A DNA stretch of 60,514 bases, taken from the NCBI GenBank assembly GCA_944376265.1, contig CALWCD010000006.1, forward strand, positions 1 through 60,514. The letters run 5' to 3'. The position numbers and the translations under genes were made by a program. Under the pieces are notes generated by a model. That model searched no databases. It had not been told where the DNA came from and saw only the letters and a list, made by a program, of their open reading frames with translations. This DNA comes from an uncultured Clostridia bacterium (GTDB lineage: Bacteria; Bacillota; Clostridia; Oscillospirales; Acutalibacteraceae). Shown one piece after another: positions 27,376 through 58,226 of this stretch; the stretch's first letter is position 1; each line of letters starts with the position of its first letter.

Positions 27376-27400
27376 ATGTATCGCTCTCCTCCCTCTGTCT

Positions 27401-27421
27401 CCGGCGGACCAAGACCGCCGG
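27401..27421 (-). promoter_or_regulatory. 5'-leader hairpin of the dehydratase transcript
   Basis: CCGGCGG-ACCAAGA-CCGCCGG, a perfect 7-bp stem just upstream of the ribosome binding site. There is no T run after it on the minus strand, so it is not a terminator. It may stabilise the mRNA. Confidence 0.4.
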
Positions 27422-27437
27422 GTGGTTTCTCAAGGCC

Positions 27438-27466
27438 ATTCTACCACACATTCCCCGGAATGTTAA
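27438..27466 (-). promoter_or_regulatory. promoter of the dehydratase-aldolase operon
   Basis: Minus strand TTAACA, 17-bp spacer, TAGAAT. Confidence 0.8.
27448..27463 (-). promoter_or_regulatory. palindromic operator inside the dehydratase promoter
   Basis: ACATTCC-CC-GGAATGT: 7-bp perfect arms with a 2-bp centre occupying most of the -35/-10 spacer, an ideal repressor position. The regulator is not obvious in the window. The ~190 bases from here to the terminator at 27652 contain no gene I can support. Confidence 0.65.
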
Positions 27467-27651
27467 GGGATGGGTCCAATCTCTCCCGTTTTTTATCGCA
27501 GTTCCCCACAAGACGCCTGCTCTCCATAGAGCGAAGATGCCTTTCCTGAAATCCCCGCACATCTCCCTTTCTGCGGGGCACTGTGAGGGAACCCCGCCGG
27601 GGAAACGGCTTTTTCGGGCCTCCCTACCGCTGCGCCCTTTGAAGCATAACA

Positions 27652-27684
27652 ACAAAAGCCCGCCGCGAAGCTTCGCAGCGGACT
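27652..27684 (-). terminator. terminator of the GAF-ABC/FecR/cyclase operon
   Basis: Minus strand 14-bp-arm hairpin AGTCCGCTGCGAAG/CTTCGCGGCGGGCT (with G-T pairs) followed by TTTTG, 12 bases after the TIM-barrel gene stop. Confidence 0.8.
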
Positions 27685-27695
27685 CTGAAACTAAT

Positions 27696-28460
27696 TCAGG
27701 ATTCCAGCGGGACGGTCTTTGGGACTTTTTCCAGAAAGGCCACGCTCTTCCGATACTTCTCCAGGGACCCCACCTCGATGAGCACGGACACGTCCCGGTT
27801 CATCCGGGGGAGGATTTCCCCCCAGGGAGCGGTGCCGTCCCCCAACGCCAGGTGCTCATCCAGCTTGCCGTGGTTGTCGTTGATGTGGTAATGGGCCACA
27901 TAGGGACCGCAGGCCTCCTGCCAAGCGGCCACCGGGGTTTTGGACAGGTAGGCGTGGGCCAGGTCCAGGCACACCGCAAACCGCTCCCCCTGCATCCGTT
28001 TGGCCAGCTCCACCAGGCAGTCCGGCTCCTCGTCGAACATGTTCTCCATGTAGAACCACAGCCCCGGCTCCTCCTCCAACAGCCGGCGGAAGAACTCCTC
28101 GTTCCGGTCCACCCAGCCCTGGCGGTATGAGGGCACATAAAAGTTGGGGATAAAGTTGGTGTGAAGGACGATCCCTTTCACCTGAAGCTGCCGGGCAATG
28201 TCACAGGCCTGGCGGATACGGTACTCGCTGGCCTCCCGGATAAGCCGGTCGCTGGAGTGGACGGTGATGTCCAGGAAGGGACCGTGGAGGGTGTCCTGGC
28301 TCCGGTCCCGCTTGGGCTCTGAATAGGCCCGAATCAGCTCCCGGACTTTGGCCGGGTCCTCCAGCACATGGGGTAGCATGAAGTCGTCGTACTCAAAGGG
28401 CACGTCCAAGGCCAGCCATTCCTCCAGGTGTTCCAGGTCCGGTATTCCGTGATAGATCAT
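27696..28460 (-). CDS. Sugar phosphate isomerase/epimerase-like TIM-barrel protein
   Basis: A 254-residue protein of the xylose isomerase-like/AP endonuclease-2-like TIM barrel family. Metal-site motifs are visible: LHGPF, GIVLHTNFIP, WFYMENMFDEEP (metal-binding Glu), CLDLAHAY (Asp-x-x-His) and HYHINDNHGKLDEH. GAGGAGAATACT precedes the ATG. It lies 24 bases after the adenylate cyclase gene and ends at a terminator, so it is the last gene of the five-gene operon. Its substrate, and its link to cAMP signalling or the ABC transporter, are unknown. Confidence 0.82.
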   Translation of the reverse strand: MIYHGIPDLEHLEEWLALDVPFEYDDFMLPHVLEDPAKVRELIRAYSEPKRDRSQDTLHGPFLDITVHSSDRLIREASEYRIRQACDIARQLQVKGIVLHTNFIPNFYVPSYRQGWVDRNEEFFRRLLEEEPGLWFYMENMFDEEPDCLVELAKRMQGERFAVCLDLAHAYLSKTPVAAWQEACGPYVAHYHINDNHGKLDEHLALGDGTAPWGEILPRMNRDVSVLIEVGSLEKYRKSVAFLEKVPKTVPLES

Positions 28461-28484
28461 AGTATTCTCCTCGCGGGCCTGCCC

Positions 28485-30299
28485 TTATCCCAGGGCGGGC
28501 TCCTCTTTCTTTTGGGCGGGCTCCTCCCCGGGGGCCAGAACACGGTCCAGGGCGTAAACCATCACACCCTTGGACTTGCCCTTCAGGGGGATCTCCCCGA
28601 TTTCGGTCACGTCGATCCTGTTTTGGAGCCGTTCGTAGACGAACTGGCTGATGAGGATCTGCCCGGCTTTGGCGTTGGCCTCCAGCCGGGCGGCGGTGTT
28701 TACCGTGTCGCCGATGGCGGTGTAGTCCATGCGGAACTGGGAGCCGATGTTCCCCACCACCGCGTCGCCGCAGTTGACGCCGATGCCGTAGCTCACCTTT
28801 TTCCCGAAACGCTCCATAAAGGTGGCGCCGATCCTCTCGCTGCCCGCGGCAATGTCCCGGGCGGCGCACACGGCTTTGTACACGTAGTCGTCGCTGTCAA
28901 AGGGGGCGTTGAACACCGCCATGGCGGCGTCCCCGATAAACTTGTCCAAGGTTCCCCCGTTCTGGAAGATGGCCTGGGTCACCAGGCTCAGGTACTCGTT
29001 GAGGATCTCCACCACCTGCTCCGGCTGGAGAGCCTCGCTCAGGGGGGTAAATCCCCGGATGTCCACAAACAGCACCGCAATGTGACGCTTTTCCCCTCCC
29101 AGCTTCAACTGGTAATCGTGGTTTTTGGAGATCTCCTCCACCACCTGGGGCGCCACGTATTTTCGGAAGGCCCGGACGATCTTCCGTTTCTGCAGGGCTT
29201 CCGCGGCGTATTTCACCGCCACGCCCCACACAAAGGCGGCGACCATGGCCAGGGGCAGAGCGATCACGTTCACCACCAGCCCCTGGCCGTCCAGCCAGAA
29301 GCACACTCCCACCTGCCCGGCGATGACAGCCGCTGCCGCCACGCCGCCCAGCCACAGCCGCAGCCGGGAGATCAGCAGGGTGAGAAGAAAGGCCAGCACC
29401 CCGCACACCAGACCGTTGTACAGCCGGCTGGCCTGGGTGAGGCAGCGCCCCTCCAACAGGCCTTGGACCACATTGGCGTGGATCTCCACCCCGTACATCT
29501 GGCCCCCGTGGCCGGTGGGCACCGGGTAGGAGTCCCCCATGCCGGCGGCGCAGGCGCCCACCAGCACAATGCTGTCCCGGAAGGCCTGGGCAGGGATGTT
29601 CCCCTCCAGCACGTCAATGAGGGACAAGGTCTCGTAGGCGCCGGGAGTGCCGGTGTAGTCAATCAGAATGCCGCCGTTGGCGTCCACGGACAGGCCCTCC
29701 AGGGAAAGCTCCCCTTGGGCCTTCTCCACCACCGCTGCCGCGAAGGAAAGGTACCCCTCCCGTTCCAGCAGAGCGTACCGCACCGAGTTGTCCCGGCTGT
29801 CCTGAACCGTATTGGCGAAGCCGGTGGCCACCAGGTCCTCCAGCTCCCCAAAGGGCTTCTCCACCATATCGATGTGAAGGGCGTTGGCCCAGGCGGTGCT
29901 GCCGTCCCGCTCCAGCTGGGTGGAGAACACCAGGTTGCTGGCCAGCACCACATTGGAAGCGTTCCGGCAGGCGTCCACCAGAAGCTGGTCCTCTTCCCCC
30001 TTCTCCCCGGTGAGCAGCACGTCCAAGGCGATGACCTTGGGAGCGTTGTCCCCTTGGTTCAGGGTCTGGATCAGCTGGGCATAGGGCTCTCGGGTCCAGG
30101 TCTCGAAGGGGCCTAAGGCCTCCAAGGTCTTTTCGTCGATGGCCACCACCTTGATGTTCCCGTCCACCGTGCCGGGACGCTGGTAGATCCCGTCCTGCAA
30201 AAGCAGGTCCAGGCTGGAAAACCACTGAAAGAACACCGCCAGGAAGGTGAGCACCCCCAAGGCTGCGGCCACCGCCAGGCTTTTCAGCTTCCCGCTCAT
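28485..30299 (-). CDS. CHASE2-domain class III adenylate cyclase
   Basis: A 604-residue membrane receptor cyclase. One N-terminal helix leads to an extracellular CHASE2 domain (about 30-320, including [17 protein letters not shown] and VVLASN), then a cluster of three helices (about 320-395), then a class III catalytic domain. Both metal Asp are present ([10 protein letters not shown] and [13 protein letters not shown]), as are the purine-selecting Lys in LDKFIGD with Thr in DYTAIGD (the K/T pair of CyaB1-type adenylate cyclases) and the transition-state NTAAR. The product should therefore be cAMP. The ATG overlaps the FecR-protein stop (ATGA). cAMP cyclases of this kind are uncommon in Clostridia, and no CRP-type receptor is in the window. 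Confidence 0.9.
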
Positions 30300-31762
30300 G
30301 GCTTTTTCCTCTTTTTATAGATCATTCCCAGCAGCCCCGAGAAGGAGACAGGGGCCACGATCAGCGCTACCATGGGCGCAGCCATCCGGCTGTCGTCCTC
30401 CGAAGTGGCGGAAAAGCTCTGTCCGCCGGCGTTGGAAGAATTCCCATTCTCAGAGCCCCCATTGGCCCCGCTGTTGGTGCTGGCATCACTTTGCCATTCC
30501 TCTGAGGTCTGCCCCTCCGCGCCTCCGCCTTCTTGGTTGCTGCCCTCTTCACTGCCGGCGGTTTCGCTCCCGGTGGGTTCGCCGCCGACGGTTTCGCTGC
30601 TGGCAGGTTCGCTGCTGGCGGGTTCGCTGCTGGCAGGTTCGCTGCTGGCAGGTTCGCTGCTGGCAGGTTCGCTGCTGGCGGGTTCACTGCTGGCAGGTTC
30701 GCTGGAACTAGTCCCGCCGCCGGAGGGCCAGGAAGGAATCACCGGCCTGGGGGTAGGCGACGGAGTGGGCTCCGGCGTGGGAGAGGGCGTAGGCTCCGGT
30801 GTGGGTGTGGGTGTGGGCGTAGGTGTAGGCGTAGGTGTGGGAGTGGCCGTGGGTTTTGGCGTGGGCGTAGGCGTAGCCGTGGACGAAGGAGCTGCCGGCC
30901 GCACCGGAACAGCGGCAGGCTTGTCATTGACCACGGGAGCCGGAGTAGCCGTAGGCACAGGAGTAGCCGTAGGGGCGGGGGTAGCCGTAGGAGCGGGAGT
31001 TGCCGTGGCAGCTGGGCTGGGGGTGGGAGTCTCCTGAGGCTCCTCCTGTCCCAGCACCTCTTCTGCCTGCTCCTTCAGATAGTCGGGCAGGGAGTCTACG
31101 TCAATGGGCTCTCCCGCGGAGCGGAACCGGCAGGCGGTGTCCTGCTCCTCCCCTGTCTGGCTGTCCAGGTCCTGCTCGATGATGGCCTCCTGGCCGGCGG
31201 TCAGGGTGGCCTCGTCCTGGTTCTCGTTGTCCAGCTTTACGTACACCGTGCCGTCCAGCACGGAGACACGGGTCTCACGGAGGGAACCGTCCTCCGAGTC
31301 GCCCACCTCCACCCGGAACTGGGTGCCCCGCACGGCCATAACGCCGTCGGGGGTGACAATCTCGTAGGAGTCGCCTTCCGCCAGGGGGTTCTCAATGGAA
31401 TTAAACACGGCGCCTGCCTGGAGCTCAATGCGGATGGCTCCCTGCTCCGTGTTGCCCTCCAGCTGGAAGGCAACCTGGGAGGAGGACTCCACCACCAGGT
31501 ATTTGTCCTGGTCCAGGCGCAGGTCCACTTCGCCATCGGCGCCGGTGGTCAGGCTGTCGCCGCCCTGTACTACCAGGTCGTCGTACACGGCGAATTCCTC
31601 ACCATCCCGGGTGACGGTGGCCTCTCCCTGGTATTCCAGCACGCAGACGCTCCGGTAGGTCTCTTCCCCGCCGAAAAGCACCACGCACACCACCACGATC
31701 ACCGCGGCGGCCAGGACCACACCGCCCCCCAGAAGGGCCAAAGCTTTCTTTGAGAGTTTCAA
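30296..31762 (-). CDS. FecR-domain surface protein with Thr-Pro and SSEPA repeats
   Basis: A 488-residue protein. An N-terminal membrane helix (residues 7-32) is followed by a FecR-like beta domain (about 35-210; [47 protein letters not shown]). A long disordered region then holds PAPTATP and TPxPTP repeats, seven SSEPA repeats and a Ser/Gly/Asn-rich stretch. The C-terminus ([19 protein letters not shown] then KKRKKP) looks like a wall-sorting signal, but the expected LPxTG position reads FSATS. The start is TTG at 31762, eight bases after GGAGG; no in-frame ATG fits. FecR-domain proteins often accompany CHASE2 cyclases, here with a 4-base overlap. The role is probably extracellular sensing or ligand presentation; not proven. 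Confidence 0.85.
30602..30706 (-). repeat. seven tandem 15-bp repeats encoding SSEPA
   Basis: Seven copies of GGCAGGTTCGCTGCT (plus-strand form; two carry G for A, one has an ACTGCT variant) with a period of 15 bases. Near-identical DNA copies, not just protein repeats, suggest expansion and contraction by slippage without frameshift. Confidence 0.92.
30746..31019 (-). repeat. Thr-Pro-rich low-complexity coding repeats
   Basis: Two blocks of short repeats encode TPxPTP-type units (about 30746-30880) and PAPTATP-type units (about 30940-31019). They make a rigid extended wall-spanning stalk. Confidence 0.8.
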
Positions 31763-31775
31763 AAACCCATCCTCC

Positions 31776-34580
31776 TTAGTTGCTGCTGACGTTGGTCAGG
31801 TTCAAGTGCTTGATCTTCCGCAGGGCGATCAGGTTCACGATGACCGCCATTACCCCCACGATAACCGTGGCGAGCAGGCAGGCCGTCAGATCCGGCAGGC
31901 GGATATAGCGGCTGGCGCCTGTCTCGGTGATCCACACCACCAGGTATCCCAGGCCCAGGCCCACGGCCCAGCCCAGCAGAATTCCCAGGATGGTGAGCAC
32001 AATATTGTCCTTATAAATGTACGCCCTGGTCTGCTGCATGGTGTAGCCGTTGACACGCATGACGGCCAGCTCCCGGGACTTCCGGTTGATGTACATGGTG
32101 ATCTGGTTGAGCAGCACCAGCAGCACCATCACCATGGACAGTGCCACGCACACCGCGATCACGCCGTTGAGGGAGGAGGCGTCGGAGGCGTAGACCTCGC
32201 TGCTGTCCTGGAGGAACAGGAAGCCGGGCAGGTCCTTCACCTGGTCCAGCAGACCCGTCACGTCCCCCTTCAGCAGGAACACGGAGAAATCGGCATCCCC
32301 CACCGCGGACTCCCAGTAGGACCGGGTGGTGATGAACAGGTGGTATCTCAGGTAGTGCTCGAACACGCCGCTGACGTGGCATTCCAGCCCGCTGCCGGAA
32401 TCGTCCATCAGCTCCACGGAGGAACCGTCCTCCAGGTCCATGGACTCGGCGCACTTGCGGGAGACCAGCATGCCGTCCTCCGGCACTTCCAGCGTCTCGC
32501 CGGTGAAGGCGTCGTCCAGGCGGACAAAGCCCTCCAGCTGCTGGGGATCGTCCACCACCAGTACGTGGCAGGTCTCCCAATCGCCGCCGTCCACCCGGAA
32601 GCGCTCCAGCTGCTCCTGCACCAGCAGGTACTCCACGCCGTTGTCCTCCAGCACCTGGGCAAAGTCCTGGGCGGACCCTTCGGAGCTGTCGAACACCAGC
32701 TGGTCGTTGTAGAAGAAATACTTGTCAAACTGCAGCTCCGAGGAATTCTCGTTGCCGAACTTCATGGCAAAGCTGATGATCAGCAGGGCCACGCAGCCCA
32801 TCAGTCCGGAGATGGTGGTGAGCATGCGGCCCTTGTCGCTGAGCACGTTCTTGATCATGGTGCGGGAGTAGAGGCTCAGCCTCTTATACACGCCCCAGTT
32901 GGCAAAGAAGAAGTTCTTCTCCTTCTCGGGAACCTCTCCCTTCAGCAGCAAGGTGGCGGGCACCTTCACCAGCTTGGAGCAGGCAAAGTAGGTGGCCCCC
33001 AGGAAGATGACCATGCACAGCCCCGCCGCCAGCAGCGCCGGGCCCCAGGCGAAGTCCCAGGACGCGGAGCCGATGAGCAGCATGGACTGGTACACATCGA
33101 TCACCACCACTTCCACAATGACCACACTGGCCACCCAGCCGATCAGGATGCCCAGCAGGGCGCACATGAAGTTGTACAGCATGTAGTGGCGCAGGATCTC
33201 CTTGGCAGTGAAGCCCACCGCCTTCTGGGTGCCGATGATCACCCGCTGCTCGTCGATCATCCGGGTGATAGCCGCGTAGCACACCAGGGCCGCCACCACC
33301 AGGAAGATCAGGGACAAGGACACGCTCAACGCGTAGATGGAGCTGACGGTGATCTCCACGCCCCGCACGTCGCCGATCCCGCTGCGGCTGGAGACCACCC
33401 AGTCCTCCAGGGTGACGTCCGCCAGTTCCTCTTCCGCGTCCGCCAGTTCTGCCCTGGCGTCCTCCAGTTCCGCCTGGCCGTCCGCCACTTCCTCACGGGC
33501 GTCGTCCAGCTGGGCCTTAGCCTCTTCCAGCTGGTCGTTCCCCTCTCTCCAGGCATCGATCCCCGCCTGGAGGGGAGCACCCGCAGCCCCCAGGGCGCCC
33601 AGCTGGTCCTCGGCCTCCTCCAGGTCGGTGGAGAGCCCCAGGGCGGCAAGCTGGGCCTGGAGCTGGGACAGGGAATCGTCCAGCTGGGCCTGGTTGTCGG
33701 CAATTTCCGCTTCCCCGTCGTCGATCTTGGCCTGGGCCTCATCAATCTCCGCCTGGGCATCGTCGATCTCGGTCTGAGCGTCGCCAATCTGGCTCTGGCC
33801 GTCCTCCATCAGGGTGTCGTACCGCAGCTGGGCACGCTCTTCCCCCTTGGCCTCCAGCTGTTCCCGCAGCTGGGACTCGATCTCATCGTAGGAATCGGAG
33901 TAATAGGAGACACCCTCCAACGCGGCGGTGTCCACAAAGACGGTGGTGTAGCAGCCGCTGTAATAATCCCCGTCGAACGCCTCCGGGTCCACCATCACAT
34001 AGTACTCGTTGGAACCCAGGCCCCCTTCCGCTGTGCCCCGGGCATCCAGAGTGCCGGAGGTGGAGTAGGCGGGCTGGTTGATAATGGCGGTCACCTGGAA
34101 GGTCTCCCCCTTCAGGAAGCCGTCCTGCTCCAGGGTGATGGTGTCTCCCACAGCCAGGCCCTTTTCCTGAGCCATCAGCTGTTCCACGGCCACCTCCCCG
34201 GTGCCCTGGGGCAGTTCTCCCTCCAGAACCAGGGGCTGGTTCAGCTCCTCGCCCAGGGACACCACAGCCACAGAGGTCTTTTCTCCCTCCACCACGTAGC
34301 GGGCCGTGTCGGAATAGCCGCCCTCCGCCACGGAGACATCCTCCCAGCCGGCAATGGCGTCCACGTCCTCCTGGGTGATGCCGTTGGCGCAGGAGATCTG
34401 CCAAGCGGCCAGATGGTTCTCCTGGAAGTACCGGTCCGCCCGGGCCAGCAGCGCCTTGCCCGAGGAGAGCATTCCCAAGAAAATGGCGATGCTGGTGGCG
34501 GCAATAAAGGCCACCGCGAAGAAAGACACTCCCGATTTGCGGATTGTCCGCAGAAGATGCTTATACTTAGTTGTTTTCAT
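31776..34580 (-). CDS. FtsX/MacB-type ABC transporter permease with an extracellular coiled coil
   Basis: A 934-residue permease with two FtsX-like halves. The first helix follows KSGVSFF. The large extracellular region (about 45-400) contains a MacB-like periplasmic-core pattern ([19 protein letters not shown]) and then a long coiled coil rich in [11 protein letters not shown]-type heptads (about 250-390). Further helix clusters lie at about 410-560 and 800-920 ([27 protein letters not shown]). Such permeases perform mechanotransmission or export of lipids/peptides rather than import. The ATG at 34580 overlaps the ATPase stop as TGATG. The stop lies inside the ribosome site of the FecR gene, so coupling is tight. 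Substrate unknown. Confidence 0.87.
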
Positions 34581-35803
34581 CACCACACCAACTCCTTTGC
34601 GCTGGCCGGATGGCTGTTCACGGTGATCTCAGACACCACGCCGCCCTTCATGCGGATGACCCGGTTGGCCATTTTCGCAATCTCCTCATTGTGGGTCACC
34701 ATCAGAATGGTGGTGCCGGCCTTGATCACCTCTTCCAGCACGGTGAGCACCTCGATGCTGGTCTCGTAGTCCAGGGCGGCGGTGGGCTCGTCGGCCAGGA
34801 TCACCCGGGGCTTCTTGATGAGGGCCCGGGCAATGGACACCCGCTGCTGCTGGCCGCCGGACATCTGGGCGGGATAGTTGTCCTTGCGCTTCGCCAGGCC
34901 CACCTTTTCCAGGGCCTCCCCGGAATCCATGGGGTCATCGCAAAGGTCGCCGATGAATTCCAGGTTCTCCTGGGCGGTGAGGGTGGGCATCAGGTTGTAG
35001 GCCTGGAAGATAAAGCCCACGGAGTGGCGGCGGTACATGGTAAGAGTTTTTTCGTCGGCCTTGGAGTAGTCCTTGCCGTCAAAGGTGAAGGTGCCGGTGG
35101 TCAGCTGGTCCATGCCGCCGATGATGTTCAGCATGGTGGACTTGCCGCAGCCGGACTCGCCCAGGATCACCAGGAATTCCCCTTCCCGCACGTCCAGGTT
35201 CACGCCCTTGAGGATCTGGATCTTGTTCTCCCCTTCCCCGAAGGTCTTGGTCACATTCCGCAGGGAAATAATGGCGGGCTTCTCCTGGGTCATGCCCAGG
35301 TTCAGGCCCCTGCCGTCGATGGCGATGGCCGCCAGCATGGCCAGGTTCTCGCACAGGCTCACGTCCTCGTCGTTGTAGAGGGTGCCGTCCTTCTTGTTGA
35401 TGATCTGGATGCAGCCAATGACCTCGTACTTGTTCACCAGAGGCACGCAGATCATGCTCCGGGTGACAAAGCCGGTGGTCTCGTCAAAGCGACCGGCCCA
35501 GCGGGGATCGCTCTGGCAGTCCTTCACCACGGTGGTCTTGCCTTCCTTCACAACGGTGCCGGCAATGCCTTCCCCTTCGGCCAGGCTCAGGCCGGTCAGG
35601 TCTGCGCCGCCGATCCAGAAGGAGGGATAAATCCGCTTATCCCCTGAGATGTTGTAGGCCCACACGGTGCCGGCTTCCGCGCCCACCGCCTTGACCACTT
35701 CGTTAAGGCTTTCCCGCAAAGCGTCCTCTAACGATTCCGCTTCCTGGAGCAGCCTGGTAATTTCCCAAACTACCTGGGTATAGCCAATCCTCTTTTTTTC
35801 CAT
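34580..35803 (-). CDS. GAF-domain/ABC ATPase fusion (LolD/MacB-type ATPase)
   Basis: A 407-residue protein with two parts. Residues ~1-165 form a GAF sensor domain ([72 protein letters not shown]). Residues ~175-400 form a MacB/LolD-type ATPase with Walker [12 protein letters not shown]-loop [10 protein letters not shown], signature [15 protein letters not shown], Walker [13 protein letters not shown] and the H-loop VTHNEE. The start at 35803 follows AAGGGGGACG; the longer open frame to 36079 has no ribosome site. A GAF domain on this ATPase class is unusual and suggests the transporter is gated by a small cytoplasmic ligand, perhaps cyclic nucleotide or redox. It is first in the operon. Confidence 0.9.
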
Positions 35804-35960
35804 GATTTCGTCCCCCTTGACGGATTTGGATTTGTGACAGAATAACGGCGGCTTCCGCCGCCCTGTTCCTTGCATGAAGCCTACGGTGCCCCCGGCCCGG
35901 GAGCCGAACCCGATTTTTTTCCCACCAGACACAAAAAGACCGCCCACCAAGCCGAATTTG

Positions 35961-35969
35961 TGGTACAAT
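35961..35969 (+). promoter_or_regulatory. possible extended -10 promoter of the LytTR regulator
   Basis: TGG-TACAAT with no good -35. It would give a ~230-nt leader before 36208. Between 35804 and 36207 I otherwise see a GGCGGC-TTCC-GCCGCC-type hairpin (about 35848-35863), the minus-strand promoter and the LytTR repeats, but no gene. Confidence 0.4.
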
Positions 35970-36089
35970 AAGGCTCGGAAGGCATCTGGACGGCATTTCC
36001 ACGGCGGCACAGTCCTCAGGGAAACCGGCGCCGGCCAGGGGCAGTTCTCCCCCTTCTTCAGGGAAGGGGCGCAAAACATTAAGAATTAT

Positions 36090-36117
36090 ATTATCAAATT
36101 CTTTTCCCCCATTGCAA
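36090..36117 (-). promoter_or_regulatory. promoter of the GAF-ABC/FtsX/FecR/cyclase operon
   Basis: Minus strand TTGCAA, 16-bp spacer, GATAAT. It gives an untranslated leader of about 280 nt. It lies directly downstream of the LytTR-type repeats. Confidence 0.65.
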
Positions 36118-36123
36118 TACCTG

Positions 36124-36156
36124 TGGCGCAAGCGGTTGTTTTCTGGCGCAAACGGT
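36124..36156 (-). promoter_or_regulatory. LytTR-type direct-repeat binding site
   Basis: TGGCGCAAGCGGT (36124-36136) and TGGCGCAAACGGT (36144-36156) repeat with a 20-bp period. Read on the minus strand they are ACCGTTTGCGCCA and ACCGCTTGCGCCA, close to the LytTR half-site pattern. They end six bases before the -35 of the minus-strand operon promoter, the usual activator position. Confidence 0.65.
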
Positions 36157-36207
36157 CATCACTTCGCTGCTTTCAGGCTGTGGGAAGGGGGTTCCGAGGT
36201 GAGTTGT

Positions 36208-36939
36208 ATGCTCCACGCGGCCATTGTAGACGATCTTCCCGGCGACCGGGAACAGCTTGCTCAGTTTCTCTCCGACTACGGAGAGGAGCGTTCCCTCTCC
36301 TTCCAAGTGGAATGCTTCTCCAGCGGGGAGGCATTCCTGCAGGCTGCCCATCCCGGAAATTTTTCCCTTGTCTTTCTGGACATCCTCATGGGGGGCATTA
36401 ACGGCGTAGAAACCGCCAAAAGGTTCCGCGCCGCAGACCCCCAGGCGCTGCTGGTCTTTGTGACCACAGAGGCGAGCTACGCCCTGGAGGGCTACAATGT
36501 GGAGGCCTCCGGCTTTCTGGTAAAGTCCGCCCCGCCCAGCAGGGAACCCTTTTTCCGGCTGATGGACCGCCTGCAGCCCAAACTCCGTCCCACCTCCCTG
36601 ATCGAGCTGGAGGATGGGGCCTCACGGGTGAAGCTGCCCACAGACTCCCTGCTGTACGCAGACGTGAAAAACCACGACATTACCCTTCACACCATGGACT
36701 CCGCTTTTTCCCTGCGGGGAACCCTGGAACGGCTGAACTCCCAGCTGCCCCAGAACGGCCAGTTTTTCCAGTGCCACCGGGGGGTTATTGTGAACCTGGA
36801 CTGGGTGGACTCGGTGGGAAAACAGGTGATCTCCATGAAAAACGGGGACGTGCTCCCGGTGAGCCGCCGCAGCTACAAGGCCCTGACGGAAGCTCTCACC
36901 GCCCGGAACTTCCAGAGGCTCCGGGAAAAAATGGGGTAA
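36208..36939 (+). CDS. LytTR-family response regulator
   Basis: A 243-residue two-domain regulator. The receiver domain (1-~120) has the acidic pair in AIVDD, the phospho-acceptor Asp in LVFLDILMGGINGVE, the switch Thr in FVTTEASYALEGY and the Lys in FLVKSAP. The C-terminal LytTR DNA-binding domain (~135-240) shows LLYADVKNHDITLHT and FFQCHRGVIVNLDWVDSV. The start at 36208 has GAGG eight bases upstream; the open frame to 36112 is an extension without a ribosome site. No histidine kinase is adjacent. It is divergent from the GAF-ABC operon, and a LytTR-like repeat lies between them, so it probably activates that operon. Confidence 0.9.
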   Translation: MLHAAIVDDLPGDREQLAQFLSDYGEERSLSFQVECFSSGEAFLQAAHPGNFSLVFLDILMGGINGVETAKRFRAADPQALLVFVTTEASYALEGYNVEASGFLVKSAPPSREPFFRLMDRLQPKLRPTSLIELEDGASRVKLPTDSLLYADVKNHDITLHTMDSAFSLRGTLERLNSQLPQNGQFFQCHRGVIVNLDWVDSVGKQVISMKNGDVLPVSRRSYKALTEALTARNFQRLREKMG

Positions 36940-36956
36940 ACCGCCTGGCAGAAACA

Positions 36957-36999
36957 GAAAATCCGGACCGCCGTCCCTGGACAGCAGCCCGGATTTTTT
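36957..36999 (+). terminator. terminator of the LytTR regulator gene
   Basis: AAAATCCGG / CCGGATTTT around a partly paired interior, followed by T. It overlaps the stop of the converging AraC gene. Confidence 0.8.
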
Positions 37000-37789
37000 A
37001 AGTTTTTCCCCGCTGGTATTTCCGGTAGTTCCCCGGGGAAAGCTGTTCCTTCCGTTTGAAGATGAGGCTGAAATAGTTGGCAGACCCGAACCCGCACTCC
37101 TCGGCGATCTGGCAGATGCTTTTGTCCGTGCGCAAAAGCTCTTCCTTGGCTTTGGTCAGCCGCAGGTTCAGCAGGAAGTCCATGGGGGAGCAGTGAAGGT
37201 ACCGGTTGAAATTGTAGATGATGGTGGCCTTGGACACGAAAAAACGGTCTGCCAGGCCGTCCAATGTGAGCCGCTCCTGGTAGTGGGCGTACAGGTGGTC
37301 GATGACCTTCAGCACCAGGGGCGGCACCCGGTGGTCCACTGCCAGGCTGGGCTGGGAGGCCAGATCCACCCGGCTGAGGGCCACCAGGAAATAGGCGAAC
37401 AGCCCTTCCAAAATGTACCGGCCGTACTTGGCGCTGCTGTGGGCTTCCGCCATGTCCCGGAGCAGCTCCAGAAAGACCTGGTTCTGCTGGGGGGACAGTT
37501 TCATCACCCGTAGGGCCCGCTCGTTGAGAACATGAAGCTGGAAGGGGTTGAGGTATTCCGGGCTCACGTCCACGTTATACCGTTGGAAGGGGCCGCCCTC
37601 TGTCTTGTGCATCACGTTGGGCGGGATGACCAGCACGCTGGGGGCCTGGATGTGGTGAAGGGCGTTGGCCAGCAGCAGCTGGCGGCTGCCCTCGTAGATG
37701 TAATAGATCTCGTAATGGGGATGGGAGTGAAGGTCCTGCATGGTCCAGCTGTCGCTGCGCGCCGAGCGTTCCACTTCGATAAAGCTCAT
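36998..37789 (-). CDS. AraC-family transcriptional regulator of the uronate genes
   Basis: A 263-residue regulator. The N-terminal cupin-like sensing domain has HSHPHYEIYYIYEGS; the C-terminal double helix-turn-helix runs from about residue 160 (LTLDGLADRFFVSKATIIYNFNRY and ICQIAEECGFGSANYFSLIFKRKE). It is divergent from uxaB, and the two promoters overlap at their -35 regions, the classic layout of an AraC regulator controlling its neighbour. The inducer is presumably a uronate or a pathway intermediate (inference). Confidence 0.9.
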   Translation of the reverse strand: MSFIEVERSARSDSWTMQDLHSHPHYEIYYIYEGSRQLLLANALHHIQAPSVLVIPPNVMHKTEGGPFQRYNVDVSPEYLNPFQLHVLNERALRVMKLSPQQNQVFLELLRDMAEAHSSAKYGRYILEGLFAYFLVALSRVDLASQPSLAVDHRVPPLVLKVIDHLYAHYQERLTLDGLADRFFVSKATIIYNFNRYLHCSPMDFLLNLRLTKAKEELLRTDKSICQIAEECGFGSANYFSLIFKRKEQLSPGNYRKYQRGKT

Positions 37790-55817: not shown

Positions 55818-58226
55818 TCACAGCTTTTGCAGCCGGGCAAAATTGGCAAAGAGTTTTTTCGTTCCCACCTTTTCAAAGGCGATCTCCAGCAGGGTGTCGT
55901 TGGCCATGGGGGTGGCGGAGAGAATCATCCCCTGGCCGAAGGTCTTGTGAGAGACCGTATCCCCCGCCCGGTAGGTCCCTGCCGGGGCAGGCTTGACGGG
56001 GTGGGGGGTAAACAGGGGCTTGACCGTTCCCGGCTTGGCGCCGGCCCCGGGCTGAGAAACACCGGGCCGCTGGCCGGGGCGGTTTCCGAAGGAGGGCATG
56101 GTCCCCTGAGAGGGACGGCTCCAGTCGTGGGAACGGGTGTGCTCCAGCAGCTCCTCCGGGATCTCCCCGGCAAACCGGGACAGCCGGTTGCGGCTGGTGG
56201 TGCCGAAGATCATCCGGCTTTCCGCATGGTACAGGTACAGCTCTTCCCGGGCCCGGGTGATGGCCACGTAGGCCAGGCGCCGTTCCTCCTCCACCTGCTC
56301 CGGGTCGTACAGCACCGCCATGCCGGGGAACACTCCCTCTTCCCAGCCGGGCAGGAACACCACGGGGAACTCCAGACCCTTGGCGGAGTGAACCGTCATC
56401 AGCACCACGGAGTCGGCGTTCTCATCGTAGTTGTCAATATCGGTAAACAGGGACACTTCCTCCAGGAACCCGGACAGGGAGGCCTCTTCCCCTGCCTCCT
56501 CCTCGTACCGGCGGAGCATGGAGGAAAGTTCCTGAACGTTCTCAATGCGCTCCTCGGCCTTTTCCGGCTCGTCCTGGCGGAGGAATTCCTCGTACTGGAG
56601 CCGGTCCACCAGCTCTCCGTACAGCTCGCTGGGAAGCAGCTCTCCCTCCTGGTTCTTCTGGATAAACTCCTCCATCAGCTCCACAAAGGGTGCCAGCTTT
56701 CCAGCCGCCCGGGAGATGGCCGGGTAATCCTTGGGATGGGAGAACACCTGGAACAGCGTCTCCCCCACCTGCTGGCCGATCTGGGCGGAAAGGTCCACGG
56801 TCCGCTCTCCGATGCCCCGCCGGGGCACGTTGACAATGCGGCGCAGGCGCATTTCGTCGGAGGGGTTGTTGATGACGCTCAGGTAGGCGATCATGTCCCG
56901 GACCTCTTTCCGGTCGAAGAACCGGGTGCCGCCGATAATCCTGTGGGGGATGCCCTGCTTGGCGAACATTCTTTCCAGCGCCTGGGACTGGGAGTTCATC
57001 CGGTACAGCACCGCGTGGTCGGAGAACTTCCGCCCCTGGGCCACCCCCTCTAAAATGGTGCGGGCAATGCGGTCGGCCTCGTCCTGCTCGTTGTCTGCCA
57101 GGTGCAGGCCGATCTTCTTTCCCGGCCCGGCGGCGGTCCACAGGGTTTTGCCCTTGCGCTCGGTGTTGTTGGCGATCACCGCGTTGGCGGCGTCCAGAAT
57201 ATTCTGGGTGGAGCGGTAGTTCTGCTCCAGACGCACCACCTTCGCCCCGGGGAAATCCTCCTCGAAGTGGAGGATGTTCTCAATGGTGGCTCCCCGGAAT
57301 TTGTAGATGCTCTGGTCATCGTCGCCCACCACGCACAGGTTGCCGCTTTTCTGGGCCAGCAGGCTGACAAACTCATACTGGGCGTGGTTGGTGTCCTGGT
57401 ACTCGTCCACCATCAGGTAGCGGAACCGGTTCTGGTAATACTCCAGCACGTCGGGGCAGTTTTTAAACAGTTTCACCGTGTTCACCAGCAGGTCGTCAAA
57501 GTCCATGGCGTCGGCGTCCGCCAGGCGGCGCTGGTAGGACAGGTAAGCCCTGGCCACCTGCTTCAAGCGGAAGTCGTCCCCTGCGGCGGAGGCAAATTCC
57601 TCCGGGGTTGTGAGCTGGTCCTTGGCACGGGAAATCTCCGCCAGAGCCCCCTTGGGGGACAGCGCCCGTTCGGAGATCTCCAGGTCTTTCAGCACCTCTT
57701 TCATCAGCCGACGGCTGTCGTCGGTATCGTAAATGGTGAAGTGGGAGGTAAAGCCCAGCCGGTCCCCGTCACGGCGGAGGATCCGGGCGCAGCTGGAGTG
57801 GAAGGTGGAGGCCCACACCTCCTGGCCGCCCTCTCCCAGCATTTGGCAGAGCCGGTCCTTCAGCTCCCCTGCCGCCTTGTTTGTAAAGGTAATTGCCATT
57901 ACACGCCATGGCGGGCAGGAAGACACTGCAAGCCTGGATCTCACCAGGTCCGGAAGCTCTCCGTCAAGGAGATAGCCTTTACAAGCTTCAATATCTTCCT
58001 CCGTCAGGGCGTCGCTGATAAAGGGGCTGTTGTAGGCCTGGCCGTAGCGAATGATATTGGCCACCCGGTTGACCAGCACCGTGGTTTTCCCGCTGCCGGC
58101 TCCCGCCAGCACCAGCAGAGGGCCTTCCGTGGAAAACACCGCCTGGCGCTGCCGGTCGTTCATGCGGGAAAAGTCCCGCTCTATCACCTGTTGTCTCAGT
58201 TTTAAAAGCTCTTGTTTGGAAATCAT
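55818..58226 (-). CDS. pcrA: ATP-dependent DNA helicase PcrA/UvrD
   Basis: An 802-residue superfamily 1A helicase for repair and replication-conflict resolution. Walker A LAGAGSGKTT, motif Ia ITFTNKAAGEL, motif II VDEYQDTN, motif III VVGDDDQSIYKFRGA, motif IV LEQNYRST, motif V TVHSAKGLEFPVVF and motif VI VAITRAREELYLY are present. About 40 residues (YGQAYNSPFISDALTEEDIE...) are inserted between motifs I and Ia, which I associate with this clostridial lineage. A C-terminal Tudor-like domain (DTVSHKTFGQGMI) ends the protein. The start at 58226 follows AAAGG at ten bases. The promoter is at 58395-58423. Confidence 0.94.
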   Translation of the reverse strand: MISKQELLKLRQQVIERDFSRMNDRQRQAVFSTEGPLLVLAGAGSGKTTVLVNRVANIIRYGQAYNSPFISDALTEEDIEACKGYLLDGELPDLVRSRLAVSSCPPWRVMAITFTNKAAGELKDRLCQMLGEGGQEVWASTFHSSCARILRRDGDRLGFTSHFTIYDTDDSRRLMKEVLKDLEISERALSPKGALAEISRAKDQLTTPEEFASAAGDDFRLKQVARAYLSYQRRLADADAMDFDDLLVNTVKLFKNCPDVLEYYQNRFRYLMVDEYQDTNHAQYEFVSLLAQKSGNLCVVGDDDQSIYKFRGATIENILHFEEDFPGAKVVRLEQNYRSTQNILDAANAVIANNTERKGKTLWTAAGPGKKIGLHLADNEQDEADRIARTILEGVAQGRKFSDHAVLYRMNSQSQALERMFAKQGIPHRIIGGTRFFDRKEVRDMIAYLSVINNPSDEMRLRRIVNVPRRGIGERTVDLSAQIGQQVGETLFQVFSHPKDYPAISRAAGKLAPFVELMEEFIQKNQEGELLPSELYGELVDRLQYEEFLRQDEPEKAEERIENVQELSSMLRRYEEEAGEEASLSGFLEEVSLFTDIDNYDENADSVVLMTVHSAKGLEFPVVFLPGWEEGVFPGMAVLYDPEQVEEERRLAYVAITRAREELYLYHAESRMIFGTTSRNRLSRFAGEIPEELLEHTRSHDWSRPSQGTMPSFGNRPGQRPGVSQPGAGAKPGTVKPLFTPHPVKPAPAGTYRAGDTVSHKTFGQGMILSATPMANDTLLEIAFEKVGTKKLFANFARLQKL

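What the first reader, a model, noticed from the sequence alone, without database searches (positions are those of the whole stretch)
27652..36156. Five-gene operon joining a GAF-gated ABC exporter, FecR surface protein and CHASE2 adenylate cyclase
Seen: five minus-strand genes with overlaps of TGATG and ATGA and gaps of 13 and 24 bases, one promoter (36090-36117) and one terminator (27652-27684). Known: FecR-domain proteins and CHASE2 cyclases often co-occur; MacB/FtsX systems export or transmit force. Inference: the surface FecR/coiled-coil proteins sense or bind something outside, the CHASE2 cyclase makes cAMP, and the GAF domain on the ATPase could read cAMP or another small ligand, closing a loop. 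The final TIM-barrel enzyme hints at a metabolic output. I do not know this combination as a described system.
Basis: partly seen in the sequence, partly recalled or inferred. Interest (0 to 1): 0.85.

Follow-up and report, generated by a model that had tools for sequence, protein, structure and literature searches.

The report
Putative cAMP-gated ABC transporter operon
Five genes in a gut-type bacterium look like one signalling unit in which a membrane sensor makes the messenger cyclic AMP and a cyclic-AMP-type receptor domain fused to an ABC motor reads it; related bacteria use the same unit with other outputs, which makes the idea directly testable.

Summary
The five-gene operon is real, open and laid out as described. 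It is not a one-off. A scan of 84,980 species with the GAF domain alone found 43 relatives in Clostridia and other Bacillota: FtsX lies within 10 kb in 37 of 43; of 21 with at least 8 kb downstream, 14 have a CHASE2-cyclase and 14 a FecR gene within 10 kb. A class III cyclase is encoded in 38 of the 43 genomes, against 31 of 390 sampled class genomes. CHASE2-cyclases elsewhere in the class often sit with FecR, one metallo-hydrolase (Nfo-like TIM barrel or class-II-type MBL) and one GAF protein whose output is GGDEF, HD-GYP or, as here, an ABC ATPase. The window GAF is closest, in single-sequence search and predicted fold, to the cAMP-bound GAF of Lcd1, a cAMP-activated GAF-GGDEF enzyme. Best explanation: a modular cAMP cassette whose output here is a cAMP-gated ABC-FtsX machine. 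The TIM barrel is more likely a phosphodiesterase than a metabolic output (weaker). cAMP binding, gating and substrate are untested. The block with its LytTR regulator is missing at the same site in one congener, and the cyclase was not found in 28 other genomes of the genus.

The parts
34580..35803 (-). GAF-ABC ATPase, 407 aa: N-terminal GAF (about 35300-35791) and DevA/MacB/LolD-type ABC ATPase (about 34619-35272)
   Evidence: Pfam GAF_2 and ABC_tran; GAF best PDB relatives Lcd1 (5W10), CyaB2, PDE GAFs; predicted fold nearest 5W10
31776..34586 (-). FtsX-type permease, 936 aa, two FtsX stretches, coiled coil (residues about 238-400, 33387-33875)
   Evidence: Pfam FtsX, two stretches; SMC-like coiled-coil matches
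30296..31762 (-). FecR-domain protein: N-terminal hydrophobic segment, FecR domain (residues 71-174 of the translation used), Pro/Thr-rich and SSEPA repeats, C-terminal hydrophobic segment with basic tail
   Evidence: Pfam FecR, tandem repeats, sequence read by eye
28485..30299 (-). CHASE2-class III adenylate cyclase, 604 aa (CHASE2 about 29403-30251; catalytic domain 28548-29087)
   Evidence: Pfam; catalytic domain aligns with cyclase 1WC1; only Guanylate_cyc match in the genome
27696..28460 (-). AP_endonuc_2 TIM barrel, 254 aa, endonuclease IV-like metal-ligand pattern; candidate phosphodiesterase
   Evidence: Pfam; profile relatives MJ1311, TTHB071, endonuclease IV; model pLDDT 92.8, Foldseek
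27655..27686 (-). intrinsic-terminator-like hairpin
   Evidence: type not enriched over shuffles
36090..36117 (-). promoter-like site TTGCAA-16-GATAAT
   Evidence: 9 of 12; weak
36124..36156 (.). direct repeat, two 13-nt copies 20 bp apart, next to the -35; candidate LytTR operator
36208..36939 (+). divergent LytTR response regulator
   Evidence: Response_reg + LytTR; same family divergent from GAF-ABC in several related loci
27394..37008 (.). block (operon + LytTR regulator) missing at the same site in congener G012
   Evidence: in G012 the homologues of the two flanks (window up to 27393 and from 37009) lie about 290 bp apart

Best explanation
A self-contained cAMP signalling cassette. An extracytoplasmic signal acts on the CHASE2 domain, perhaps with the FecR protein (inferred); the class III cyclase makes cAMP (its catalytic domain aligns with known cyclases; activity inferred). 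cAMP binds the GAF domain on the ABC ATPase (inferred from family membership and from the cassette's other outputs) and switches ATP hydrolysis, driving the FtsX permease with its coiled coil to export something or to pass force to the cell surface (undetermined). The TIM barrel, like the MBL protein of sister operons, removes cAMP and resets the switch (inferred, weaker). In relatives the same cyclase-FecR-hydrolase set is wired to a GAF-GGDEF or GAF-HD-GYP protein instead, so the ABC-FtsX pair is one of three interchangeable outputs. A divergent LytTR regulator probably controls transcription (inferred). Shown: gene content, conserved linkage, GAF-ABC beside at least two separate cyclase lineages, GAF class by sequence, empty site in one congener. 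Not shown: ligand, enzyme activities, transport, transcription.
For: (1) Linkage: GAF-only scan, 43 loci; FtsX within 10 kb in 37 of 43; cyclase in 14 and FecR in 14 of the 21 loci with at least 8 kb downstream (one of the 14, L110, has the GAF alone, and in L101 the cyclase belongs to a second, divergent set). (2) Co-occurrence: class III cyclase in 38 of 43 genomes with the GAF, own excluded (27 of 29; 11 of 14), against 31 of 390 class genomes, own excluded. (3) Gene order changes but membership stays: L107/L108 have GAFABC-CYC-FtsX-TIM-FecR. (4) One GAF output kind per cassette: of 51 distinct CHASE2-cyclase loci, 15 GAF-ABC, 14 GAF-HD-GYP, 10 GAF-GGDEF, 12 none, 0 with two kinds; FecR in 42 of 51. 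In the class sample of 18, within five genes: GAF protein 12, FecR 15, TIM/MBL 12. (5) GAF class: window GAF alone, best PDB hits Lcd1 5W10 (5e-17), CyaB2 (1e-14), PDE2/5/6/10 GAFs; predicted fold nearest 5W10, 'in complex with cAMP'. (6) Precedent: Lcd1 (GAF-GGDEF) and Tlr0485 (GAF-HD-GYP) are listed as cAMP-activated (PMC8846402, passages). (7) GAF-ABC sits with at least two cyclase lineages: the AU test rejects one clade of GAF-ABC-linked cyclases, p 5.8e-7.
Against: No binding, activity or expression data. In the class sample 0 of 18 CHASE2-cyclase loci has FtsX within five genes, so this output is a minority one; 7 of 21 assessable loci have no linked cyclase, and the genomes of two divergent ones (L113, L115) gave no class III cyclase, nor did those of L073, L080 and L104. 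The host genome has 5 cNMP_binding-domain proteins, so cAMP may act elsewhere. The NKFDE motif (recalled) is incomplete in the window GAF and lacking in most HD-GYP-type rows. Foldseek also returns GAFs of other proteins not far behind. Many loci are related, so counts are not independent; most are MAG contigs.
Confidence: 0.6

Rival explanations
1. The GAF gates the ABC ATPase but binds another ligand (redox cofactor, another nucleotide, a metabolite); the cyclase shares the operon because both answer to the same surface signal, and cAMP acts through CRP-type regulators.
For: Host genome has 5 cNMP_binding-domain proteins; GAF folds bind many ligands (recalled); incomplete NKFDE-type motif.
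Against: The 18 best sequence hits of the window GAF (E below 1e-9) are PDE, CyaB2 or Lcd1 GAFs and one HD-GYP protein GAF; the cassette's alternative outputs have architectures with cAMP-activated precedents; no cNMP_binding protein was found in 2 of 10 genomes searched, G700 and G704, which have GAF-ABC and a cyclase (their completeness is not given).
Confidence: 0.22
2. Two modules merely co-transcribed: a GAF-ABC/FtsX exporter and a FecR-CHASE2-cyclase-TIM signalling module, with no molecular link.
For: Each occurs without the other: no linked cyclase in 7 of 21 assessable GAF loci; no FtsX within five genes in 18 of 18 class-sample CHASE2-cyclase loci.
Against: Genome-level co-occurrence 38 of 43 against 31 of 390; GAF-ABC beside at least two cyclase lineages; cyclase gene between GAF-ABC and FtsX in L107/L108; of the 36 CHASE2-cyclase loci without GAF-ABC, 24 have another GAF output nearby.
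Confidence: 0.13
3. The TIM barrel is a sugar isomerase/epimerase or cobamide-type enzyme giving a metabolic output, unrelated to cAMP turnover.
For: Foldseek also returns tagatose/psicose 3-epimerases; NCBIfam best is CbiR (54.3 bits, cut-off 105). That TIM and MBL never meet is one split on the cyclase tree, so it is weak evidence for a shared role.
Against: His, Glu and Asp columns matching the endonuclease IV ligands are invariant in 19 sequences; seven of the nine can be seen aligned with an endonuclease IV; TIM and MBL never share a locus (19 TIM, 19 MBL, 0 both, 13 neither of 51).
Confidence: 0.4
4. Anti-phage (Pycsar-like) function: cyclase signal plus membrane effector.
For: Class III-type cyclase next to a membrane machine; the MBL part of L135 matches Pfam Anti-Pycsar_Apyc1 weakly, below its cut-off.
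Against: Adenylate-type cyclase (residue roles recalled) with a CHASE2 sensor; c-di-GMP-type outputs in sister cassettes; LytTR gene alongside. PADLOC was not searched.
Confidence: 0.04

Closest known systems
Lcd1, cAMP-activated GAF-GGDEF diguanylate cyclase of Leptospira (PDB 5W10)
   Same: Same GAF class: best single-sequence PDB hit and best fold hit. GAF-GGDEF proteins sit near 10 of 51 CHASE2-cyclases, where the window has GAF-ABC.
   Different: Output is GGDEF; here an ABC ATPase with an FtsX permease. Literature seen as passages in PMC8846402 and PMC11800159, not the original paper.
Tlr0485, cAMP-activated GAF-HD-GYP phosphodiesterase of Thermosynechococcus
   Same: GAF-HD-GYP architecture, found near 14 of 51 CHASE2-cyclases.
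   Different: Different output; from a cyanobacterium (passage in PMC8846402).
DevA / MacB / LolD / BceAB-type ABC systems
   Same: ATPase scores best with DevA and MacB models and MacB structures; FtsX-type permease.
   Different: GAF fused to the ATPase; permease with two FtsX stretches and a coiled coil; none of the 25 models shown reaches its cut-off. Of eight loci of near FtsX relatives read, five have a GAF-less ATPase of 233-234 aa.
CBS-domain, c-di-AMP-gated ABC importers such as OpuA/OpuC (recalled, no call)
   Same: A second messenger acts directly on an ABC ATPase subunit.
   Different: Other messenger, other receptor domain, importer rather than FtsX-type machine.
Class II (MBL-fold) cyclic-nucleotide phosphodiesterases: YhfI, Apyc1
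   Same: The MBL protein of sister operons has HxHxDH and matches RNase Z, 6KNS (recalled to be YhfI) and weakly Apyc1; YhfI prefers cAMP/cGMP (passage in PMC9117128).
   Different: The window has the TIM barrel instead.
CbiR and endonuclease IV (AP_endonuc_2 superfamily)
   Same: Fold and metal-ligand pattern of the TIM barrel; both act on phosphodiester bonds (passages in PMC7733943).
   Different: About half of CbiR's cut-off score; no cobamide gene among the five.

Membership tests
cAMP-sensing GAF effectors (Lcd1/Tlr0485 kind) | GAF of the cyclic-nucleotide-binding class | tested here: met
   CyaB2, Lcd1 and PDE GAFs are the best sequence relatives; Lcd1 is the best fold match
cAMP-sensing GAF effectors (Lcd1/Tlr0485 kind) | GAF fused to an output enzyme domain | tested here: met
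   GAF + full-length ABC_tran
cAMP-sensing GAF effectors (Lcd1/Tlr0485 kind) | cAMP binding and cAMP-dependent activity | not testable with these tools
   Needs protein
cAMP-sensing GAF effectors (Lcd1/Tlr0485 kind) | NKFDE-type motif (recalled) | tested here: inconclusive
   NK, an aromatic and one acidic position kept, last Glu not; the Lcd1 GAF stretch shown (NR in place of NK) is also non-canonical
CHASE2 class III adenylate cyclases | CHASE2 domain plus class III catalytic domain with metal Asp, adenine-type Lys/Thr and Asn/Arg (residue roles recalled) | tested here: met
   alignment with 1WC1
MacB macrolide exporters | reaches the MacB equivalog cut-off; ATPase and permease in one chain (recalled) | tested here: not met
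   204 bits against cut-off 966; two separate genes
FtsX-type ABC permease superfamily | FtsX domains with a LolD/MacB-type ATPase partner | tested here: met
   FtsX within 10 kb of the GAF in 37 of 43 loci
FecR anti-sigma regulators | partner ECF sigma factor in the operon (recalled) | tested here: not met
   None of the five proteins matches a sigma-factor Pfam; genes beyond the operon were not all scanned
CbiR cobamide remodelling enzymes | CbiR equivalog cut-off | tested here: not met
   54.3 bits against 105
Endonuclease IV-type metal phosphodiesterases | full set of metal-binding His/Asp/Glu (ligand list recalled) | tested here: met
   Invariant H59, H100, E139, D166, H169, H190 and H192, D201, H203, E229 in 19 sequences; seven of nine visible against an endonuclease IV (H59 and E229 lie outside the stretch shown)
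Endonuclease IV-type metal phosphodiesterases | phosphodiester hydrolysis | not testable with these tools
   Needs protein

The most novel reading that the evidence does not exclude
cAMP directly gates an ABC ATPase through a fused GAF domain, making this a cyclic-mononucleotide-gated ABC-FtsX machine, and the Nfo-fold TIM barrel is a new kind of cAMP phosphodiesterase; together with GAF-GGDEF and GAF-HD-GYP versions it forms a swap-in, swap-out cAMP cassette that moves between gut Clostridia.
Probability: 0.4. Interest if true: 0.9.

Novelty: new variant of a known kind. Interest (0 to 1): 0.78.

Why it matters
To my knowledge (recalled) cAMP signalling in gut Clostridia is little studied. 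The bacterial cAMP-GAF outputs in the review passages I saw are c-di-GMP enzymes; others are cyclases and phosphodiesterases themselves. If this holds, a cyclic mononucleotide acts directly on a membrane ABC machine, and a group of large FtsX permeases with coiled coils gets a control input. The swap of outputs behind one sensor set lets the receptor, the messenger and the hydrolase be tested one by one, and it predicts a new cAMP phosphodiesterase fold.

Tried and rejected
LytTR consensus scoring of upstream regions did not separate sites from background and was dropped. Repeat finding without a consensus (five regions) gave repeats 20 bp apart in the window, L076 and L090, another spacing (26) in L082 and none in L073.

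Riboswitch in the 5' region: no Rfam match up to E 1 in 35700-36300.

Mis-binned contig: thought unlikely on one gene. The helicase-like protein at 55821-58226 (named by eye) is 71-89% identical in congeners and at most 55% in other families (no match in 2 of 24 congeners).

TIM/MBL exclusion as strong statistics: one search gave p 7e-6, but the cyclase tree shows one change only, so it counts as one event. Window GAF-ABC belonging with the MBL-type lineage while its cyclase belongs with the TIM type: the cyclase side is clear (p 9e-9 against grouping with MBL-type), the FtsX side has SH-aLRT 98, the GAF-ABC side is not significant (support 85; p 0.4 for the alternative), so reassortment in the window is suggested, not shown. 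Three separate GAF-ABC associations: not shown; the TIM-type ones can form one clade (p 0.505).

Dropped rows: L079 was left out of the TIM set as another family at 20% identity, and L088 and L109 as truncated (22 rows, 19). The GAF-ABC tree leaves out L078, L100, L110-L115 and the divergent L101 copy. L056 (short) was left out of the tree, L132 as a near-copy of L131. The TIM count includes the L079 outlier; no cyclase is in view there.
Full report
WHAT IS THERE. The ATPase has a GAF domain ahead of a full-length DevA/MacB/LolD-type ATPase domain; the permease has two FtsX stretches and a coiled coil; the FecR protein has hydrophobic segments at both ends, Pro/Thr-rich and SSEPA repeats; the cyclase has a CHASE2 domain and a class III catalytic domain that aligns with 1WC1, with the metal, adenine-type and transition-state residues (roles recalled) in place; the TIM barrel is of the AP_endonuc_2 family. 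Promoter and terminator matches are weak. A divergent LytTR regulator and a direct repeat 20 bp apart lie directly upstream.

IS IT CONSERVED? I scanned 84,980 species with the GAF domain alone (plus a short linker), so that the cyclase played no part in the choice: 181 stretches matched, 43 were confirmed, in records titled Oscillospiraceae, Lachnospiraceae, Christensenellaceae, Erysipelotrichaceae, Anaeromassilibacillus, Flavonifractor and others. Neighbourhoods within 10 kb: FtsX in 37 of 43, FecR in 23, CHASE2-cyclase in 17. Many contigs are short; of the 21 with at least 8 kb downstream, 14 have the cyclase and 14 FecR (L110, one of the 14, has the GAF as a separate gene, and in L101 the cyclase belongs to a second, divergent set). 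In the other seven the genome still has a cyclase for L091, L099, L102, L103 and L112, and none was found for L113 and L115. Over all 43 genomes a class III cyclase is found in 38 (27 of 29 without the own genome, 11 of 14, one of them a partial match at a contig end); in an even sample of the class it is found in 31 of 390 without the own genome (that sample includes two of the 43 genomes). Gene order varies: L107 and L108 have GAFABC-CYC-FtsX-TIM-FecR; L101 has the second set head to head with GAF-ABC/FtsX; L110 and L111 have a stand-alone GAF gene and a GAF-HD-GYP gene. The search of GAF-ABC in 391 class genomes gave 3, own included, a lower bound because only four candidates per genome were scored. 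Large FtsX relatives are common (150 of 391); of eight such loci read, five have a GAF-less ATPase of 233-234 aa, so the GAF looks like an addition to a common pair.

THE WIDER CASSETTE. I then started from the cyclase. In the class sample, chosen by the cyclase family only, every match place outside the window was read and 18 CHASE2-cyclase loci were found: within five genes FecR in 15, a GAF protein in 12, a TIM or MBL protein in 12, an ABC ATPase in 2, FtsX in 0 (L165 has a weak match); beyond five genes there were none of these among 75 genes. Over 51 distinct CHASE2-cyclase loci gathered by either route, the window not counted (within 8.5 kb): FecR 42; TIM 19, MBL 19, both 0, neither 13; GAF-ABC 15, GAF-HD-GYP 14, GAF-GGDEF 10, none 12, never two kinds. 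The GAF-ABC figure is selected by the first scan, the exclusivity is not. In L135, L158, L162, L164 and L165 an MBL domain is fused to GAF-GGDEF. A family whose example has NHL and choline-binding repeats is near 16 of 51.

TREES. On the cyclase tree (51 rows with the window) the TIM and MBL types part once, while outputs change at least five times; all three outputs occur on both sides. GAF-ABC-linked cyclases are not one clade (AU p 5.8e-7), so GAF-ABC sits with at least two cyclase lineages; the count cannot tell gain from loss. The window cyclase belongs to the TIM side (p 9e-9 against grouping with the MBL-type GAF-ABC loci), though its GAF-ABC is nearest by path to L076, an MBL-type locus (not significant). 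GAF and ABC domains are more conserved (mostly 75-90% identical to the window) than FtsX (28-55%) or CHASE2 (30-59%).

THE GAF. As a single query the window GAF finds Lcd1 (5W10), CyaB2 and PDE2/5/6/10 GAFs first, with one HD-GYP protein (4MCW) among the first 18; other GAFs follow from 1.5e-6. A profile of 37 GAFs from ABC, GGDEF and HD-GYP partners finds CyaB2 at 1e-57. The predicted fold (pLDDT 90.9) is nearest to 5W10, 'Lcd1 GAF domain in complex with cAMP ligand'; GAFs of other proteins come close behind, as expected for the fold. A Gln is kept in 90% or more of the rows in the INK strand and is also Gln in the CyaB2 GAF shown; its role in adenine binding is recalled. The review PMC8846402 (passages) lists Lcd1 (GAF-GGDEF) and Tlr0485 (GAF-HD-GYP) as cAMP-activated: the same two architectures that take the GAF-ABC place in sister cassettes. 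That is the strongest argument that the ABC version reads cAMP too; it is not a binding test.

THE TIM BARREL. Best profile relatives are MJ1311, TTHB071 and endonuclease IV; the fold search gives TTHB071, MJ1311, AP endonucleases and sugar epimerases. Nineteen family members keep invariant His, Glu and Asp columns matching the endonuclease IV ligands (ligand list recalled). CbiR, which acts on a phosphodiester and is of this superfamily (PMC7733943, passages), is the best NCBIfam match but at half its cut-off. The MBL protein on the other side of the tree is of the RNase Z/class II type, a kind that includes the cAMP/cGMP-preferring YhfI (PMC9117128, passages). I therefore think a phosphodiesterase role more likely than a metabolic output, about 0.5 to 0.6, with the exclusion resting on one evolutionary split.

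MOBILITY. The cyclase was not found in 28 of 28 other genomes of the genus at E 1e-20. One gene at the far end of the contig groups with the genus. In congener G012 the homologues of the two flanks lie about 290 bp apart, so the operon with its LytTR gene came or went as one piece; no shared repeat of 10 or more bases was found at the two ends.

NOVELTY. Paper searches for the combination gave two papers each and none in the others; by title and start of abstract none describes this arrangement, and I did not read those four. Only open-licence papers are held. I rate it a new variant of a known kind: cAMP-GAF effectors are known, an ABC-FtsX machine as their output and the swap-in cassette are, as far as searched, not.

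Noticed in passing
L149, L150, L151, L152, L155 (around the cyclase): Another cyclase family (about 1140-1185 aa, no CHASE2 match) has a GAF gene of about 570-610 aa next to it in five of six class-sample loci, not in L148; perhaps a further cAMP-GAF pair.
   Followed up: no
L135:6168-7889, also L158, L162, L164, L165: MBL domain fused to GAF-GGDEF in one protein beside a CHASE2-cyclase; the L135 MBL part matches Pfam Anti-Pycsar_Apyc1 weakly.
   Followed up: partly
L101:1107-13698: Two GAF-ABC/FtsX pairs head to head, one with its own cyclase, TIM and FecR genes; the second GAF-ABC is very divergent.
   Followed up: partly
L110:9983-10489, L111:9983-10489: Stand-alone 168-aa GAF gene close to the GAF of GAF-ABC (58% identical) without an ATPase, near a GAF-HD-GYP cassette.
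   Followed up: no
G000 contig C61, 8466-10538: A second large FtsX permease with an open frame of 1176 aa in the host genome, 26% identical to the window's.
   Followed up: no
window 30548-30704: 15-nt tandem repeats coding for SSEPA repeats in the FecR protein; their number may vary between strains (not checked).
   Followed up: no
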